A program made the translations under genes and the position numbers. Shown one piece after another: positions 37,323 through 46,826 of a stretch of DNA of 64,000 bases (its first letter is position 1; each line of letters begins with the position of its first letter). Below the pieces are notes generated by a model. It saw only the letters and a list, made by a program, of their open reading frames with translations. It had not been told where the DNA came from and searched no databases. This DNA is from Wenzhouxiangella marina (GTDB lineage: Bacteria; Pseudomonadota; Gammaproteobacteria; Xanthomonadales; Wenzhouxiangellaceae): the NCBI RefSeq assembly GCF_001187785.1, contig NZ_CP012154.1, positions 986,501 to 1,050,500 of the forward strand, in the 5' to 3' direction.

Positions 37323-37481
37323 GCTGGCGCCGGGCGAGCCCGGTCAAGGCCCCGATGGCGGGCAGTGCGCGGTACCGACAAATGGAGTAGCATCCGAGCA
37401 CAGGGAGGCCGTGGTTCGGGTACGAACGAATGCATGGTCAGAGAAGAAACCCGCCAGGGCCGCCAGGCCAAAGGGGACAAG

Positions 37482-38984
37482 ATGAAGACCATCCATTCGA
37501 TTGCTTTTGCGGCATTCGGACTGCTTTCCTGTGGCGCTTCCGCCCAGGTCATGGAAGCACTGCAGACCGGTGACACCTGCAGCTTCTTCGGCGAGGACGT
37601 GCCGGCCAGCGTCACCACCTTCGCCTCCGACAGGGAGGCCGAATCGGCCATCTCGCGGATCGTCGACGCCTCCGGTCTGGTGCAGAACTTCCAGATCCGC
37701 GCCGCCGGCGTGCCCAACGCGGCCGCCGTCGTCTACGAGGACAAGCGCTACATCCTCTACAACCAGCACTTCATGCGCGACACCACCAGCCAGGCCAACA
37801 ACAGCTGGGCGCCGATCAGCATCATGGCGCACGAAGTGGGCCACCACCTCAATGGTCACACGCTGGAAGCCGGCGGCAGCCGCCCGCCGATCGAGCTCGA
37901 GGCCGACTACTACTCCGGCTTCATCCTGCAGCGCCTCGGAGCCTCGCTGGACGATGCCCGCGTGGCCATGGAAGTGCTGGGTTCGGACGTCGGTTCCGAT
38001 ACGCACCCGGCCAAGAACGACCGCCTGGCCGCCATCACCAATGGCTGGATCCGGGCCTGCCAGTCCGATTCCAGCTGTGACCAGCAGACCCCCGACAATG
38101 GTGGTGGCCTGAGCCCCGACTCGCAGAACGCACCGCGCATGCCGACCAGCCCGCCGGTCAGCACGCCGCCGCCGACCCAGTCCGGCGAGAACAGCTGCCG
38201 CTGGGCCTTCGACGGCGAGTGTGACGAGCCGAACCTCTGCGCCGCCGGCACCGACACCGCCGACTGCTCCGCCGCAGGCCCGAACAGCTGCCGCTGGGCC
38301 TTCGACGGCGAGTGTGACGAGCCGAACCTCTGCGCCAGCGGCACCGACACGGCGGACTGCAGCGGCGGTGGCCAGGCCGGCGGTCCGAACAGCTGCCAGT
38401 GGGCCTTCGACGGCGAGTGCGACGAACCCAATCTCTGCCCGCCGGGTTCGGACACCGCCGACTGCAGCGGTTCCAGCCCCGTCGACCGCGCCAACAGCTG
38501 TCAATGGGCCTTCGATGGCGAGTGTGACGAGCCCAACCTCTGTGCCAGCGGCACCGACACGGCGGACTGCCGCGGCGGTGGCCAGGCCGGCGGCCCGAAC
38601 AGTTGCCAGTGGGCCTTCGACGGCGAGTGCGACGAGCCCAACCTCTGCCCGCCGGGCTCGGACACGGCCGATTGCCAGAGCGGTCCGAACAGCTGCCAGT
38701 GGGCCTTCGACGGCGAGTGCGATGAACCCAACCTCTGCCCGCCGGGCTCGGACACGGCGGACTGCCGGAGCGCCGGAGCGCTGAAGACCAGCTCCCAGCC
38801 GGCCCGCCAGGGCAACGCCTCCCTGTACCCGAGCGGACAGCCCATGCAGGACTGCGGCTGCTGGGGCGCCAACCCGGTCCAGACCGCACCGGAACCGCTT
38901 TGCCAGCGTGGCCACGTGCAGCTGGCCATCTGCGACGGTGCATGCCCGGGCGGCGGCAGCCCCTACGGCTACATCTGCCAGTAG
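37482..38984 (+). CDS. Secreted M48-like metalloprotease with six cysteine-rich repeats
   Basis: 500 residues with a signal peptide (IAFAAFGLLSCGASA). The protease-like domain (about 20-200) contains the zinc motif IMAHEVGHHLNGH and, about 20 residues later, IELEADYYSG, which supplies the third ligand as in M48 gluzincins. After a Pro-rich linker, six near-identical units follow (about 236-428) of the form NSC-[RQ]-WAFDGECDEPNLC ... G-[ST]-DTADC, separated by Gly-rich spacers. Four cysteines and clustered acidic residues per unit resemble calcium-binding LDL-receptor class A modules. A cysteine-rich tail ends the protein. The ATG at 37482 has AAGGGG just upstream. Confidence 0.85.
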   Translation: MKTIHSIAFAAFGLLSCGASAQVMEALQTGDTCSFFGEDVPASVTTFASDREAESAISRIVDASGLVQNFQIRAAGVPNAAAVVYEDKRYILYNQHFMRDTTSQANNSWAPISIMAHEVGHHLNGHTLEAGGSRPPIELEADYYSGFILQRLGASLDDARVAMEVLGSDVGSDTHPAKNDRLAAITNGWIRACQSDSSCDQQTPDNGGGLSPDSQNAPRMPTSPPVSTPPPTQSGENSCRWAFDGECDEPNLCAAGTDTADCSAAGPNSCRWAFDGECDEPNLCASGTDTADCSGGGQAGGPNSCQWAFDGECDEPNLCPPGSDTADCSGSSPVDRANSCQWAFDGECDEPNLCASGTDTADCRGGGQAGGPNSCQWAFDGECDEPNLCPPGSDTADCQSGPNSCQWAFDGECDEPNLCPPGSDTADCRSAGALKTSSQPARQGNASLYPSGQPMQDCGCWGANPVQTAPEPLCQRGHVQLAICDGACPGGGSPYGYICQ

Positions 38985-40714: not shown

Positions 40715-41095
40715 ATGTTGTCGACATATCAGCGCGAACCGACCAGTGAGGTTTCATGCCCTAGTTGCAAGAAGCAGATTCGCTTCTACGCTTTCTCGGC
40801 CATGGGAGATATGGCCCCGCACTTTTACTGCACCCGCTGTTCCAACGTGTATTTTTCCGAGACAATGCGTCGGAAACGTAAGCAGCAAGGAGCAACGGCA
40901 GACCTTCTATCTGAACTTGAGGATTCACTTCCGAAATGTCCATGCGGTGGCCAATTTCGGCCAGACCAAAGCCCGAAATGCCCCCATTGCCACGTGGAGC
41001 TCGCACATCAGGACACTCCGATGAGCAAGCTAAGTGATCCCTTTGCTATCTTGCTGGACGGCGCAAGTGCGGTATCTCCAAGCAATGACAGCTAA
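40715..41095 (+). CDS. Small zinc-ribbon protein (cassette 1)
   Basis: 126 residues with four cysteine pairs: CPSC at about 15, CTRC at about 39, CPCGG at about 75 and CPHC at about 88. These should make two zinc ribbons. No enzymatic domain is visible; the role might be nucleic-acid or protein binding. The stop overlaps the beginning of an attC-like site (41090-41188), as is usual for integron gene cassettes. Confidence 0.7.
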   Translation: MLSTYQREPTSEVSCPSCKKQIRFYAFSAMGDMAPHFYCTRCSNVYFSETMRRKRKQQGATADLLSELEDSLPKCPCGGQFRPDQSPKCPHCHVELAHQDTPMSKLSDPFAILLDGASAVSPSNDS

Positions 41096-41188
41096 CAAAT
41101 CGCTGCAGCTGACGTTTGACCCGCCACCTACTTTCTCTGTCGCAAAAGTAGGCGTCGCCTCAAACGCAGCTGAGCTCAGGCGTTATAC
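41090..41188 (+). other. attC recombination site 1
   Basis: The 99-bp element begins GCTAAC and ends GCGTTATAC. Outer arms CAGCTGACGTTTGA and TCAAACGCAGCTG pair with a single bulged base, and an inner CCTACTTT/AAAGTAGG stem closes the loop. This is the imperfect-palindrome architecture of integron attC sites. It is about three-quarters identical by eye to the site at 46728-46826, and it sits exactly between two plus-strand ORFs. Confidence 0.8.
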
Positions 41189-42054: not shown

Positions 42055-43074
42055 ATGAGTGATCAAATCCCTCCTTCCCGACAAGCCCTGAGAGAAGCTC
42101 TGGCATTATCCGAAGACATATTAAAAAATATTGAGCTAAGCGAAATGCCACTTGCAAATATTTTGCTGAAGGCGTCTAGACTAGCTCGATTGTTAAATGA
42201 TTTTGATAATCAAAAAATAATGGAGCTAGAAGCTAGCGGATATCCTTCTTCTCCTAATGGTGTTGATCCTGTCATCTATCGGCTAGCTGTAATTGCAGGC
42301 CGTGAGTCCCAGCAGAAAGATGCAAAAACAGAAAAAATAAATAATTACATATATTTGAATTCGATTGAGGAGCTGGAGCAGGAAGTAAAGTCCGCCGACT
42401 CGGCTTTGGCTGCGGCTCGTGATCCTGATGTTTCAGTATCATCGGCCAATCCAAGCCAGATGGTTTGGAACCCCGTTGGAAATAAATTCGAGAGGGATAC
42501 CATTCGGACGAACGCAGCCCGCGCACAGCGCAGGCTATCATCACGGCGGTCGTTCATATATTCCTATGCATTAAAACGGCATCATGAACTTAAGTTCTCA
42601 GGAATAGCAGACGATATATTTTCTCGAGTGCGTGAAAGCGTGGATAACGCAATCGGCGAGAGAGTTCCAGGTGCGGCCCAGAAGCTTTCAGCTGTTTATG
42701 AAAATTTACAATCCGAGAACCCGGAAGACTGGGCTAATGCTGTTCACAGTTGCCGTCGAATTCTTCAGGATCTGGCAGACTCATTGTATCCACCAAGAGA
42801 TGATGTTGAAAAAGAAATTGGCGGGAAAAAACGTTTAATAAAACTTGGGCCAGATAACTACATAAATAGATTGATAGCATTCCTTGAAGAAAATTCAGAG
42901 TCAGAAAGATTTGAAGAAATTGTTGGAAGTCACCTTGGGTTTGTGGGTGATAGGCTAGATAGTGTATTTCAGGCTGCCCAAAAAGGGTCCCACGCTGCTG
43001 TTTCCAAAGAAGAAGCAGACCGCTATGTTGTTTATACATACTTGGTCGTCGGAGATATGTTGAGCCTGCTGTGA
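42055..43074 (+). CDS. AbiTii-like putative abortive-infection protein (cassette 3)
   Basis: 339 residues. The N-terminal 80 residues match the AbiTii domain pattern: LANILLKASRLARLLNDFDN, an acidic helix ending in LEASGYP, and DPVIYRLAV. The C-terminal end (KGSHAAVSKEEADRYVVYTYLVVGDMLSL) resembles the closing helix of HEPN-like or Abi effectors. AbiTii domains occur in abortive-infection (phage-defence) proteins, so a defence role is inferred, not shown. The gene is markedly AT-rich. Its stop is 4 bp before an attC start (CTCTAAC) that is broken by an insertion sequence. Confidence 0.65.
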   Translation: MSDQIPPSRQALREALALSEDILKNIELSEMPLANILLKASRLARLLNDFDNQKIMELEASGYPSSPNGVDPVIYRLAVIAGRESQQKDAKTEKINNYIYLNSIEELEQEVKSADSALAAARDPDVSVSSANPSQMVWNPVGNKFERDTIRTNAARAQRRLSSRRSFIYSYALKRHHELKFSGIADDIFSRVRESVDNAIGERVPGAAQKLSAVYENLQSENPEDWANAVHSCRRILQDLADSLYPPRDDVEKEIGGKKRLIKLGPDNYINRLIAFLEENSESERFEEIVGSHLGFVGDRLDSVFQAAQKGSHAAVSKEEADRYVVYTYLVVGDMLSLL

Positions 43075-43090
43075 AAAGCTCTAACAAGTC

Positions 43091-43346
43091 ATATATGGAC
43101 TCCTCCCGCAACCCGAGACTGAACGACGCATGAGGTTGGATTCGTTGCAAGCGTATATTCGGCCTCTTGTTGATCGCGGATATTCCTCGATCGGGCCATC
43201 ATGAGTTCCGCGTACCGCGGGCCATTCGCTCAAAGCGGCATTGGCTATGCCGAACTTGTTATCGGCCTTGTGCGGTACCGGTCCAACCTGTGGTGTCATG
43301 AAGCGTTCGGTCTCTTCGCAAACGGTGCAGAGGGATGATTGACGGG
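43091..43346 (-). ncRNA. Putative seekRNA/bridge RNA region of the IS1111-type element
   Basis: The 3' non-coding region of the transposase gene is the position where IS1111-type elements encode their target-selecting RNA. On the minus strand, 43266-43249 reads GCCGA-TAACAAGT-TCGGC, a 5-bp stem with an 8-nt loop. The loop is identical to TAACAAGT at 43082-43089, the attC sequence flanking the insertion. The stem-loop and the match are seen directly; RNA function is inferred from the family. RNA ends are unknown. Confidence 0.5.
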
Positions 43347-44387
43347 TCAGCTCAAGACTGGACCGGGGTTGAACGGGGCGCGTTGTTTCCAGACCGCCCA
43401 GCAGATCCGAGCCATCTTGTTGGCCAGGGCAACGGTGGCCTTGTTGAAGCCGACCCGCTGCTCGAGTCGCAACGCCCAGCGCTGGAGTCGGTTCAGGGGT
43501 TTGCCGGCCTTGGCCAGGGTCTTGGCTCGACAGAGTGCCGACCGAGCGCCATGGATGATCAGCATCCGGAGGTACTTGTCGCCGCGCTTGGTGATCCGTC
43601 CCAGCCATCGCTTGTTTCCACTGGAGCATTCCAGCGGTGTGATCCCCAGCCACGATGCGAAGTGTCGACCGGACTTGAAGTGATCGGGCGAGCCGGCGCA
43701 GGCGACGAGTGCGGTGCTGGTCAACAGCCCGACGCCCGGGACCTGCTGAAGTAGGGAGACCTCGTCGTTATCGCGTGTGAGGGCGTGGATCTGTTGCTCG
43801 GCGAGCGTGATCTTGGCTTCCAGATCAGTGATCTCCTGAAGCAGTTCGGAGAATACGGCGCGAAGGCCGGCGGGAAAGCCCTCCTGATCGATGATCGCCT
43901 GGGCGTGGCGTTTGGCCGCGTTGGGTCCAGCCGGGATGGCATGGCCAAGTTCCCGGAGGCATCCGCGAAGTCCGTTGATGCGAGCGACACGGGTGGATTT
44001 CCACTGCTCTCGAACCCGATGCAGCTGTTGGATCTGCTGCTGGTCAACGGACCGGACCGGGACAGGATGAACCCGCCCGCTTCGATAGGCATCGAGCAGG
44101 GCTTCGGTGTCGGTCTGATCGGTCTTGTTGCGCAGTCGGTACTTTCTGACGAACTGGGCGGGGAGCATGATGGGTTCATGCCCGAGCTCCCGAGCCTGTC
44201 TGCACCAGAAGTGGGCGCTGCCGCAGGCCTCGAACAACACGATGGAGCGATCGGCTTTGGCGAGGAATGCCTCGAACCGGGTTCGCGACAGCCGGTGATG
44301 GGCGTAGGCCTTGCCCTGAGCTCTGGCGAGGGCGACCTGGAAGACCTCCTTTGCGAGATCGACGGCGATGAGAGTAGACTGGTTCAT
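43347..44387 (-). CDS. IS110-family transposase (IS1111-type recombinase)
   Basis: 346 residues from the ATG at 44387. The N-terminal RuvC-like DEDD domain has LIAVDLAKEVFQVAL (first Asp) and LFEACGSAHFW (Glu), with KTDQTDTEAL (Asp pair) further on. The C-terminal domain with the catalytic serine has QQVPGVGLLTSTALVACAG and FASWLGITPLECSSGNKRW. IS110-family enzymes use both halves in an RNA-guided recombination. AGGAGG lies 5 nt upstream of the ATG; 12 nt around this start (GGAGGAGTCCAT) are the same as in the terminal inverted repeats. The frame is intact, so the element may be active. Confidence 0.93.
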   Translation of the reverse strand: MNQSTLIAVDLAKEVFQVALARAQGKAYAHHRLSRTRFEAFLAKADRSIVLFEACGSAHFWCRQARELGHEPIMLPAQFVRKYRLRNKTDQTDTEALLDAYRSGRVHPVPVRSVDQQQIQQLHRVREQWKSTRVARINGLRGCLRELGHAIPAGPNAAKRHAQAIIDQEGFPAGLRAVFSELLQEITDLEAKITLAEQQIHALTRDNDEVSLLQQVPGVGLLTSTALVACAGSPDHFKSGRHFASWLGITPLECSSGNKRWLGRITKRGDKYLRMLIIHGARSALCRAKTLAKAGKPLNRLQRWALRLEQRVGFNKATVALANKMARICWAVWKQRAPFNPGPVLS

Positions 44388-44565
44388 GGACTCCTCCTGT
44401 CGTGGGACATTCAACGAAACGCACCCGAATGTTGGCACATCGCGATGCCGGTAAAAACGCGGGAGGAGTCCATTTCATCAATCAAATACGCGCCTTCGGC
44501 GCCGGACGCAGCAAAGCTGCGCCGACTATTGAGGCGTTAGGTTCAAGAAGGCCCACGGAGGGTGA

Positions 44566-44934
44566 ATGGGAAGAAGGAGATACAAAAGGCGTAGCAGTGC
44601 TGGATCGATAGTGCGAGATGCCGCAGATATCGGCGCCAAACTAAGTTGGCAGGGTGCTTTAATCCTCGGCGCACTATTGTTCATCGTTTTCTATCTTGCG
44701 ATTCCAGCCTGGATTAACTCTGTGCTCGAAGGGCAGAAAAATAGCATGTTCTATCCAACGCTAGAGGCCGTGTTCGCGCGCCGTACGCATTGGGTCCAAT
44801 GGGTGGGGATCGCCTGCGCACTTGTTGGGGCGTTCTTCGCACTAAGAAACTACCATTATGGAAACAGCGCCAGCGGTGACGAGCGGGGGCTCGTGGCGCT
44901 ACTGGCGCGCCTTCTTGGTCGGTCACTTGATTAA
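44566..44934 (+). CDS. Small two-helix membrane protein (cassette 4)
   Basis: 122 residues: a very basic start (GRRRYKRRSS), a membrane helix (GALILGALLFIVFYLAIPAW), an external loop of about 30 residues and a second helix (WVGIACALVGAFFALRNYHY) before a C-terminal tail ending LLARLLGRSLD. I know similar sequences only as hypothetical membrane proteins, often next to restriction or defence genes. GGAGGGTGA precedes the ATG, 24 bp after the end of attC site 3. The following 44935-45123 stretch has no gene and may hold a worn attC (GCCTACC near 44938). Confidence 0.6.
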   Translation: MGRRRYKRRSSAGSIVRDAADIGAKLSWQGALILGALLFIVFYLAIPAWINSVLEGQKNSMFYPTLEAVFARRTHWVQWVGIACALVGAFFALRNYHYGNSASGDERGLVALLARLLGRSLD

Positions 44935-45123: not shown

Positions 45124-46245
45124 ATGACGGACATCATTCAGCACCTTAAAGAGGAAGAAAACGACTTCTACTCTGATGACGACCTATTCAAGATCTCATC
45201 GTGGGGCGCCGATCTTTCCTTTCGTGAACTGATAGCCCGGTATGACGACAACGAATTGGTGAAGCCCGAACTTCAGCGTAAGTATGTTTGGGACAGAACT
45301 GAGGCGTCCCGCTTCATTGATTCCTTATTGCTCGGCCTCCCTGTCCCAAGCATTTTTCTAGCGAAAGCGTCAGACGAGAGAATGCTAATCATTGACGGTT
45401 ACCAAAGGATTATGACCGTCTACGACTTCGTGCGTGGAATCTATTCGGGAGACGGGAAGGTATTTAAGCTTTCAAGATCAGAGAAAATCAATTCTCGTTG
45501 GAGAGGAAAAGCCTTTGCCGAACTTGGCGACGCAGAACAACGGAGGATCCGAAATACAACCATTCACGCCATAATTTTCGTCCAAGATCAGCCTTCTGAC
45601 ACTGATACGAGCCTGTATCAGGTTTTCGAGCGCATCAATACGAGTGGGCGAACATTGATGCCTCAGGAAATACGGAACTGTGTGTATCAAGGGGTATTGA
45701 ACGATCTTCTGATTGAGCTAAACAAAACCGACGACTGGCGTTCTTTGTTCGGAGGCAACGAAGATGCCCGGATGCGAGATATGGAGTTTATTCTTCGTTT
45801 CTATGCTCTCGACCCGTCAGAGACTGGGGCTATCGACAAGGAGCGCATTTCTCTGAAGAAGCACCTCAACCAGTTCATGAAAAGGAATTCGACCGCGCCG
45901 AACGGCCAGTTAGAAGAATTCCGTGCTCGCTTTTTGGGCGCTATGCGCCTCATTCACGAAACTTGGGGTAAGTCGGCGTTTCATAACGTCTCACCGACAG
46001 ATCCAAATCGATTGGTGAGGAAGTTCAGTCCTACCATTTTTGATTCCATCTCAATCGCAGCAGCTGTCGCTCTTCATCAAGGGCTCGGTTTGGCCCCTGG
46101 GGATGCAGAGTCTAACAGAAGAAGGCTACTGCACGATCCGGATTATCGCACCGCGATAAGCAAAGAGACGATGACTAAGGACTCCATTACCCGTCGCACT
46201 TCTCTGGCAATTGAGTACCTGTTTGGTGCTGGTCATGAAGAATGA
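45124..46245 (+). CDS. DUF262 domain protein (ParB/Srx-like fold), cassette 5 gene A
   Basis: 373 residues matching DUF262: ELQRKYVWDRTEASRFIDSL near 56, GLPVPSIFLAK, then MLIIDGYQRIMTVYDFVRGI near 90, where the usual active-site DGQQR appears as DGYQR. Later come IIFVQDQ and YQVFERINTSGRTLMPQEIR. DUF262 domains form the nucleotide-hydrolysing part of defence nucleases such as GmrSD and BrxU. The protein lacks the DUF1524 nuclease half; instead a HEPN-type gene overlaps its 3' end. A strong GGGAGG site lies 8 nt before ATG. No relation to neighbouring cassettes is visible. Confidence 0.85.
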   Translation: MTDIIQHLKEEENDFYSDDDLFKISSWGADLSFRELIARYDDNELVKPELQRKYVWDRTEASRFIDSLLLGLPVPSIFLAKASDERMLIIDGYQRIMTVYDFVRGIYSGDGKVFKLSRSEKINSRWRGKAFAELGDAEQRRIRNTTIHAIIFVQDQPSDTDTSLYQVFERINTSGRTLMPQEIRNCVYQGVLNDLLIELNKTDDWRSLFGGNEDARMRDMEFILRFYALDPSETGAIDKERISLKKHLNQFMKRNSTAPNGQLEEFRARFLGAMRLIHETWGKSAFHNVSPTDPNRLVRKFSPTIFDSISIAAAVALHQGLGLAPGDAESNRRRLLHDPDYRTAISKETMTKDSITRRTSLAIEYLFGAGHEE

Positions 46246-46727: not shown

Positions 46728-46826
46728 GCATAGCAAAGTGTTGCAGCGGACATTTGACCCGCTGCCCACTTTTTCTGCCGCAAAAGCAGGTGGAGGGTCA
46801 AGTGCCGCTGAACACAGGCGTTGGGA
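46728..46826 (+). other. attC recombination site 4
   Basis: The 99-bp site begins GCATAGC (one base off the usual TAAC core) and ends GGCGTTGGGA. GCAGCGGACATTTGACCC pairs with GGGTCAAGTGCCGC with a bulge, and CACTTTTTCTGCCGCAAAAGC forms the centre. It shares most positions with attC site 1, including the TTTGACCCGC and GCAAAAG blocks. Confidence 0.8.

What the first reader, a model, noticed from the sequence alone, without database searches (positions are those of the whole stretch)
43249..43266. Hairpin loop in the IS 3' non-coding region equals the attC target sequence (putative seekRNA guide)
On the minus strand, 43266-43249 folds as GCCGA-TAACAAGT-TCGGC. The exposed 8-nt loop is identical to TAACAAGT at 43082-43089, which is the attC sequence immediately left of the inserted IS. 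IS1111-type elements are known to use a non-coding RNA from exactly this region (after the recombinase gene) to select their target. Because TAAC followed by AAG is shared by many attC starts, such a guide would explain attC specificity.
Basis: partly seen in the sequence, partly recalled or inferred. Interest (0 to 1): 0.75.

Follow-up and report, generated by a model that had tools for sequence, protein, structure and literature searches.

The report
Insertion element's RNA guide to integrons
A small jumping gene that inserts into integron recombination sites carries, just after its recombinase gene, a folded RNA region that matches its landing site; such guide RNAs are already known, so this is a new, distantly related example rather than a new kind of system.

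Summary
In detail: loop TAACAAGT (43261-43254, minus strand) equals the attC sequence beside the IS and is very probably its target guide. The reading is partly right and already in print for relatives.

The element (43092-44480) is a divergent member of the IS1111-attC group: 57% identical to the nearest relative found, 45-47% to ISPa25, ISPa21 and ISKpn4. Guide RNAs of ISKpn4 and ISPst6 were shown experimentally in 2024.

Corrections: (1) Hairpin GCCGA/TCGGC shows no covariation in 24 aligned elements; the supported fold puts TAACAAGT in an internal loop beside another stem. (2) A second guide, CTTTGAGCG (43235-43227), faces it and matches the other side of the insertion point. (3) Exact 8-nt identity holds at one of the genome's four copies; the others match 6 nt, mostly with wobbles.

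Guides track flanks across 36 elements, other targets included; some elements fail. Another segment equals the element's right end in 33 of 34 elements where it was located, suggesting the bridge-RNA layout already predicted for IS1111. Expression and transposition are untested. New member of a known kind.

The parts
43092..44480 (-). Insertion sequence, 1389 bp, IS1111 type; left end at 44480, right end at 43092
   Evidence: sTIR pair plus 7-bp and 3-bp extensions; empty attC sites of the same array lack exactly this segment
43347..44387 (-). Recombinase (tnp), 346 aa from ATG; PF01548 and PF02371; GITPLECSSG matches the family motif G--P----S(T)G
   Evidence: motif as given in Siddiquee 2024
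44459..44473 (-). Left subterminal inverted repeat ATGGACTCCTCCCGC
   Evidence: 15/15 complementary to the right one
43095..43109 (-). Right subterminal inverted repeat
44474..44480 (-). Left terminal extension TGATGAA (7 bp)
43092..43094 (-). Right terminal extension ATA (3 bp)
43144..43284 (-). Guide-RNA region: target hairpin followed by donor-end segment (span of model R1)
   Evidence: alignments A1-A3, pair counts, covariance model hits
43254..43261 (-). Target guide 1 (complement of the right flank): TAACAAGT
43227..43235 (-). Target guide 2 (same sense as the left flank, crossing the insertion point): CTTTGAGCG
   Evidence: TTGAGCG exact at three of four copies, TTTGA at the window copy; family-wide test
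43247..43252 (-). Inner stem, 5' arm CGGCAT (pairs with 43241-43236)
   Evidence: inner stem 99.2% paired, 3 of 5 pairs with both-side changes
43236..43241 (-). Inner stem, 3' arm ATGCCG
43264..43267 (-). Middle stem, 5' arm GGCC (pairs with 43223-43220)
   Evidence: 94.8% paired
43220..43223 (-). Middle stem, 3' arm GGCC
43272..43278 (-). Outer stem, 5' arm GTACCGC (pairs with 43218-43212)
   Evidence: outer stem: 6 of 6 pairs with both-side changes in A2
43212..43218 (-). Outer stem, 3' arm GCGGTAC
43152..43158 (-). Putative right-end donor guide ATATACG (equals right end ATATA plus 2 nt)
43201..43205 (-). Possible left-end donor guide CTCAT (complement of left end, 4 of 5 nt here); weaker evidence
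43080..43091 (+). attC, left part (TCTAACAAGTCA), interrupted by the IS
44481..44542 (+). attC, right part, ending GCGTTAGGT

Best explanation
The window holds an IS1111-family insertion sequence that targets the same end of integron attC sites. Its 3' non-coding region encodes a guide RNA of the seekRNA/bridge-RNA kind. TAACAAGT pairs with the top strand of the target right of the insertion point; CTTTGAGCG, on the other side of the same internal loop, pairs with the bottom strand left of and across that point. The recombinase bound to this RNA would find attC, and join the circular form of the IS to it in one orientation without a target duplication. A further RNA segment that equals the right end of the IS probably helps to recognise the IS's own junction. 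Shown here: element, ends, insertion sites, conserved fold, guide-flank agreement. Inferred from published relatives: that the RNA is made, is bound, and directs transposition.
For: Four copies in the genome, all in attC, all in one orientation, same point; an integron integrase and ten uninterrupted attC sites TTGAGNGNTTTGTTA beside three of them (0 reverse, 0 in the backward-pattern control). Recombinase in one clade with the known attC-targeting elements, 24 of 44 rows, support 100/99. Guide 1, guide 2 and right-end agreement with each element's own DNA exceed all 5000 permutations over 36 elements; also for guides 1 and 2 over 14 non-attC elements alone. Within attC targeters, guide 1 follows target variants: 139 of 184 positions against 126.8 expected, 2 of 10000 permutations as high. 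Fold: 97.2% of cells paired, 31 both-side changes, 0/500 shuffles; full fold 96.0%, 69, 0/500. A model built only from this clade finds the RNA in 14 of 20 relatives outside it at E <= 0.0055. Published: 82-nt and 86-nt seekRNAs for ISKpn4 and ISPst6, top-strand match 5' of bottom-strand match, the same order as here.
Against: No RNA or transposition data for this element. The permutations do not remove relatedness, and the structure was derived from the alignment on which it was counted. On the smaller alignment two of five covariation measures are not extreme (76/500 and 16/500). In the per-element test only 15 of 38 rows beat every foreign flank, and 7 of 38 (L012, L023, L032, L033, L034, L040, L049) do no better than many foreign flanks; the reverse order scores as high for some rows, higher for L028 and L035. 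In a fixed register guide 1 has 6 of 6 leading matches in 20 of 30 copies. Rfam has no match.
Confidence: 0.9

Rival explanations
1. The recombinase reads the folded attC or the DNA sequence itself; the loop identity is a by-product or chance.
For: An 8-nt word shared with the flanks on either strand is common by chance (624 of 5000 shuffles); attC sites have a conserved structured end; three of four copies lack the exact match.
Against: Guides change with targets across the family, including non-attC targets, and among attC targeters. Published reprogramming of an IS1111 relative by changing the RNA.
Confidence: 0.05
2. The guide is right but acts in the 5-bp hairpin that the first reader drew: GCCGA-TAACAAGT-TCGGC exposes all eight bases in an apical loop.
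For: It is in the MFE fold of the window's RNA, 0.5 kcal/mol better than the conserved fold; the two could be alternative states.
Against: Across 24 elements two of its five pairs are mostly unpaired (13 and 20 of 24), and covariation does not exceed shuffles (0.167 against 0.172). Its bases are used by the middle and inner stems, which covary.
Confidence: 0.08
3. The copy is a dead remnant: the RNA is no longer made or used, and the match records a past insertion.
For: No promoter-like site inside the IS by the scan (0 found, 0.3 expected), though related elements use a promoter made at the circle junction; no expression data.
Against: Intact 346-aa reading frame, perfect 15-bp sTIRs, four nearly identical copies (recombinase 99.7-100% identical) with the same RNA region.
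Confidence: 0.1

Closest known systems
IS1111-attC elements ISKpn4 and ISPst6 with their seekRNAs (Siddiquee et al. 2024, PMC11187229)
   Same: attC target, NCR after tnp, two target matches in the order top strand then bottom strand; in ISKpn4 (L041) the same motif GGCCGATAACAA, middle and inner stems
   Different: Recombinase about 45% identical to ISKpn4's; different inner-stem and guide-end sequence. ISPst6 itself was not fetched here.
ISPa25, ISPa21, ISPa62, ISPpu24 (named in plasmid annotation)
   Same: One clade, same RNA fold; attC flanks for three of the four copies fetched
   Different: 44.6-46.7% identical recombinases; the ISPa21 copy fetched stands at a non-attC site
L028, element in an uncultured Saprospiraceae MAG contig (Bacteroidota)
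   Same: Sister of the window element (support 100/99); same fold and attC-like right flank
   Different: 57% identical; guide 1 reads TAACATTTG and matches its own flank over 9 nt, shifted by one position
IS621 bridge RNA and recombinase (IS110 group; Durrant et al. 2024, PMC11208160)
   Same: DEDD recombinase; RNA with target and donor segments; closest solved structures are IS621 (8wt6) and ISCro4 (9t56), aligned over the C-terminal part
   Different: IS110 group has the RNA at the left end, short STIRs and, per Siddiquee, reversed order of target matches

Membership tests
IS1111 family | DEDD/Transposase_20 recombinase of about 330-350 aa with G--P----S(T)G motif | tested here: met
   PF01548 3.7e-13, PF02371 2.4e-24; 346 aa, GITPLECSSG. 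The four DEDD residues were not assigned one by one.
IS1111 family | Subterminal inverted repeats, with 7-bp left and 3-bp right extensions, no target duplication | tested here: met
   15-bp perfect repeats; TGATGAA and ATA; empty sites match the joined flanks
IS1111 family | Longer non-coding region downstream of tnp | tested here: met
   237 nt between stop codon and right sTIR; 78-80 nt on the left side
IS1111-attC group | Insertion at one end of attC in one orientation | tested here: met
   4 of 4 copies in the genome. attC in relatives was judged from the flanks only, not by an attC model.
IS1111-attC group | Common descent of the recombinases | tested here: met
   24 labelled rows form one side of a branch, 100/99. 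The label includes L032 (doubtful site) and L040 (non-attC site).
seekRNA / bridge RNA | Two target matches in the RNA, top-strand match 5' of bottom-strand match in IS1111 elements | tested here: met
   TAACAAGT then CTTTGAGCG; family test
seekRNA / bridge RNA | Conserved RNA fold | tested here: met
bridge RNA | Donor-binding segments that match both IS ends | tested here: inconclusive
   Right end: 33 of 34 elements with the segment located (search pattern chosen after looking). Left end: 21 of 36 full 5-mers against 288 of 1260 foreign, several not at the aligned place; 4 of 5 nt in the window.
seekRNA / bridge RNA | RNA is made, processed, bound by the recombinase and needed for transposition | not testable with these tools
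   needs expression and transposition experiments

The most novel reading that the evidence does not exclude
The long RNA of the IS1111-attC clade is a complete bridge RNA with four reading segments: two for attC and two for the element's own variable ends, so that changes at the right end are followed by changes in the RNA (in two related copies, L041 ends in ATATG with RNA ATATGCG, L042 in ATATA with RNA ATATACG). Its attC guide is tolerant: a fixed TAACAA core followed by positions where wobbles permit several attC variants, and it is retuned between attC classes (TAACAAGT, TAACATTTG, TAACTATG). This would give the published long seekRNA, whose role was left open, the job of donor recognition, although a short 82-nt form was enough for ISEc11.
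Probability: 0.4. Interest if true: 0.5.

Novelty: new member of a known kind. Interest (0 to 1): 0.33.

Why it matters
Integrons are gene-capture platforms, and an element whose RNA is addressed to their recombination sites can interrupt attC sites. The window element widens the IS1111-attC group to a branch shared with a Bacteroidota MAG and gives a natural series of guides and attC variants. The agreement of the distal RNA segment with the right end bears on an open point in print, the role of the long RNA. For the finding itself, the principle was established experimentally in 2024, so the gain is extension and correction rather than discovery.

Tried and rejected
Rejected: the GCCGA/TCGGC hairpin as the conserved structure. 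Rejected: exact 8-nt identity as the criterion, since three of four copies in the genome lack it. Considered and not adopted: the 8-nt match as significant in itself (624 of 5000 shuffles reach a free match).

Led nowhere: Rfam scan of 42900-44700, 0 matches at E <= 1; viral contigs with the recombinase, no relative, and with the translated non-coding region, no relative; blastn against plasmids, no record covering more than 8% of the element; sigma-70-like promoter scan inside the IS, 0 found. The circle-junction promoter known from relatives was only looked at by eye in the joined ends (TTGCGG, 17 nt, TGAAAT); weak and not tested.

Mended within the session: the first right-end permutation was trivial because the searched region contained the right end itself; it was repeated with the last 25 nt removed. 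The tests are post hoc: guide segments and the search pattern for the right-end segment were defined after looking at the sequences. Rows dropped: L016 (short flank); 4 of 40 sequence clusters (L014, L016, L018 short flank; L033 deleted non-coding region); 10 loci left out of the tree (seven further copies of elements already in it, L060, which is a decayed extra copy, the second copy L035, and truncated L011; L022, L025, L027, L023, L024, L061, L062 are the seven). The covariance search was given 20 loci outside the clade; second copies L023 and L024 were not given.

Full report
What is there. The minus strand at 43266-43249 reads GCCGATAACAAGTTCGGC, and TAACAAGT occurs in the window only there and at 43082-43089. 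The surrounding element is an insertion sequence of 1389 bp, 43092-44480, with perfect 15-bp subterminal repeats, a 7-bp left extension TGATGAA, a 3-bp right extension ATA, and a 346-aa recombinase of the DEDD/Transposase_20 type. These are the published features of the IS1111 family (Siddiquee et al. 2024, PMC11187229; parts 1-5 of 9 of the text read, and passages).

Copies and sites. The genome has four full copies. The other three lie in an attC array at 3.641-3.653 Mb next to a gene over the cut-off of the integron-integrase model. The same array has ten uninterrupted sites TTGAGNGNTTTGTTA, all forward, none for the backward control pattern. Comparing occupied and empty sites gives the insertion point TTGAG^CGGTTTGTTA; the window site is TTTGAT^TGACTTGTTA. 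All four copies have the same orientation relative to attC. Two 92-nt repeats that look like attC lie at 41093-41184 and 46731-46822, so the window copy is probably in a small cassette cluster of its own.

The guides. TAACAAGT is the reverse complement of the right flank ACTTGTTA. Further along the RNA, CTTTGAGCG has the sense of the left flank and runs over the insertion point: TTGAGCG is exact at three copies, TTTGA at the window copy. Guide 1 is exact over 8 nt at the window copy; at two other copies 6 nt match and two wobble, at the third 6 match, one wobbles and one mismatches. So the window site has the better guide 1 match and the poorer guide 2 match. The order, top-strand match before bottom-strand match, is that reported for IS1111 seekRNAs.

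Relatives. Recombinase searches found 13 of 101 close-relative genomes at E <= 1e-40, 7 of 369 class genomes at 1e-70, 2 of 398 phylum genomes at 1e-75 and 10 of 398 order genomes at 1e-70, the window's own genome counted each time; one relative in genome contigs, 57% identical; and 76 plasmid records at 1e-60, all under 60% identity. Ends could be placed in 50 elements, which fall into 40 groups by their non-coding region. In a tree of 44 recombinases the 24 rows labelled attC form one side of a branch with support 100/99, and the window element is sister to the Saprospiraceae MAG element L028 (100/99). Of the 24, 22 have recognisable attC flanks, L032 is doubtful and L040 (annotated ISPa21) stands elsewhere.

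Do guides track targets? For 36 of the 40 groups I summed the longest exact run between each element's own DNA and its non-coding region and permuted the pairing 5000 times. Guide 1: 238 against a mean of 189.0 (largest 210). Guide 2: 219 against 188.0 (largest 211). Left end: 162 against 147.9 (largest 160). Right end: 180 against 144.9 (largest 159). None of the 5000 reached the observed value in any of these. For the 14 non-attC elements alone: guide 1 97 against 72.3, guide 2 86 against 69.4, again 0 of 5000. Examples are L013 (AACGTGGACA and TTGGGTG), L047 (TGAAGTAC and ATGAAGGCG) and L048 (AATCTCAAG and CAACTTG). Within attC targeters, 23 distinct guide-target pairs match at 139 of 184 positions, 126.8 expected, 2 of 10000 permutations as high. 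Telling cases are L057 (TAACTATG in both), L035 (TAACAAAT in both) and L028 (TAACATTTG, 9 nt, one position shifted).

Results against. Only 15 of 38 rows beat every foreign flank in the per-element test, four of them copies of the window element; seven rows (L012, L023, L032, L033, L034, L040, L049) are no better than many foreign flanks, and the reverse order does as well in some rows and better in L028 and L035. L053, L054 and L056 have mismatches inside the six-base core, L040 keeps an attC guide at another site, L033 has lost the target part and L060 has a decayed end. Permutation does not remove common descent.

The fold. The alternative, a middle stem GGCC/GGCC and an inner stem CGGCAT/ATGCCG, is paired in 97.2%, with 31 both-side changes and covariation 0.446 against 0.188, 0/500; two other measures are less extreme (76/500 and 16/500). 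With the outer stem and the donor part, 26 pairs on 22 elements give 96.0%, 69 both-side changes, 0/500 for all five measures. The two guides face each other across this internal loop. The structure came from the same alignment, which favours it; slid versions give at most 43.9% and 41.0%. For the window alone the hairpin is 0.5 kcal/mol better (-32.5 against -32.0), so both could exist. Predicted folds of L041 (ISKpn4), L028, L053 and L032 show the internal-loop form. A covariance model built from the 24 clade members (17 pairs used) finds the region in 14 of 20 loci outside the clade at E <= 0.0055; four more are weak (0.25-0.84) and L015 and L044, the nearest outsiders in the tree, give nothing. 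In the own genome it finds the four copies and one chance-level match.

Donor segment. A segment after the target hairpin, ATATACG in the window, equals the last five bases of the right end plus two. It was located by a pattern in 34 of 36 elements and agrees in 33; the exception, L060, has a decayed right end. L041 and L042, close relatives, differ by one base at the right end and by the same base in the RNA. A left-end segment is less clear: 21 of 36 elements hold the full 5-mer, several not at the aligned place, and the window has 4 of 5. Durrant et al. 2024 (PMC11208160; [quoted passage not shown] Siddiquee et al. left the role of the long RNA open and found a short form sufficient for ISEc11. 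The segment lies outside the target hairpin; whether it lies outside the 82-nt RNA of ISKpn4 I infer from lengths only.

Mechanism. Shown by sequence: element, ends, sites, fold, guide agreement. Inferred from experiments on relatives: transcription from the circle junction, processing, binding to the recombinase, circle formation and insertion. Not shown for this element by any search.

Place among known things. Defining features of the IS1111 family and of the attC group are met as far as they can be tested; RNA production is untestable here. ISKpn4 and ISPst6 seekRNAs are experimental and ISPa25's is predicted in the same paper. The papers that defined the attC group (Tetu and Holmes 2008; Post and Hall 2009) were seen only as citations; the first was looked up and is not held. 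Searches for later work returned no paper on this element that I recognised from the listings; this covers only the open-licence library. Verdict: a new, divergent member of a known kind, with a corrected fold and a second guide.

Noticed in passing
window 41093-41184 and 46731-46822: Two 92-nt repeats, 76% alike, that begin TAACAAAT / TAGCAAAG and end CAGGCGTT; they look like attC sites and suggest a small cassette cluster around the IS.
   Followed up: partly
window 42055-43074 and 45124-46245: Genes flanking the IS in this cluster match AbiTii (2e-13) and the GmrSD restriction N-terminal domain (4.2e-27), names linked to phage defence.
   Followed up: no
window 44386-44397: A third copy of 12 nt of the subterminal repeat, GGAGGAGTCCAT, overlaps the ribosome-binding region and start codon of tnp; similar GGAGNNGTCC words stand before tnp in some relatives printed.
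   Followed up: no
window 38173-38769, in the reading frame 37365-38984: Six repeats of about 90-105 nt encode a cysteine-rich unit, NSCQWAFDGECDEPNLCPPGSDTADC.
   Followed up: no
L040 (ISPa21 copy, NZ_OL468819.1): This attC-group element stands at a site that is not attC, with ATACGAATTG on both sides of its repeats; possibly an off-target insertion or a rearrangement.
   Followed up: partly
L023 (G027): One of two copies of an IS1111-type element (L012/L023) has about 270 nt more in its non-coding region, ahead of the guide part; L030 also has a long one with an inverted repeat.
   Followed up: no
L015 and L044: Two elements nearest to the attC clade in the tree give no match to the RNA model; they may use a different RNA form.
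   Followed up: no
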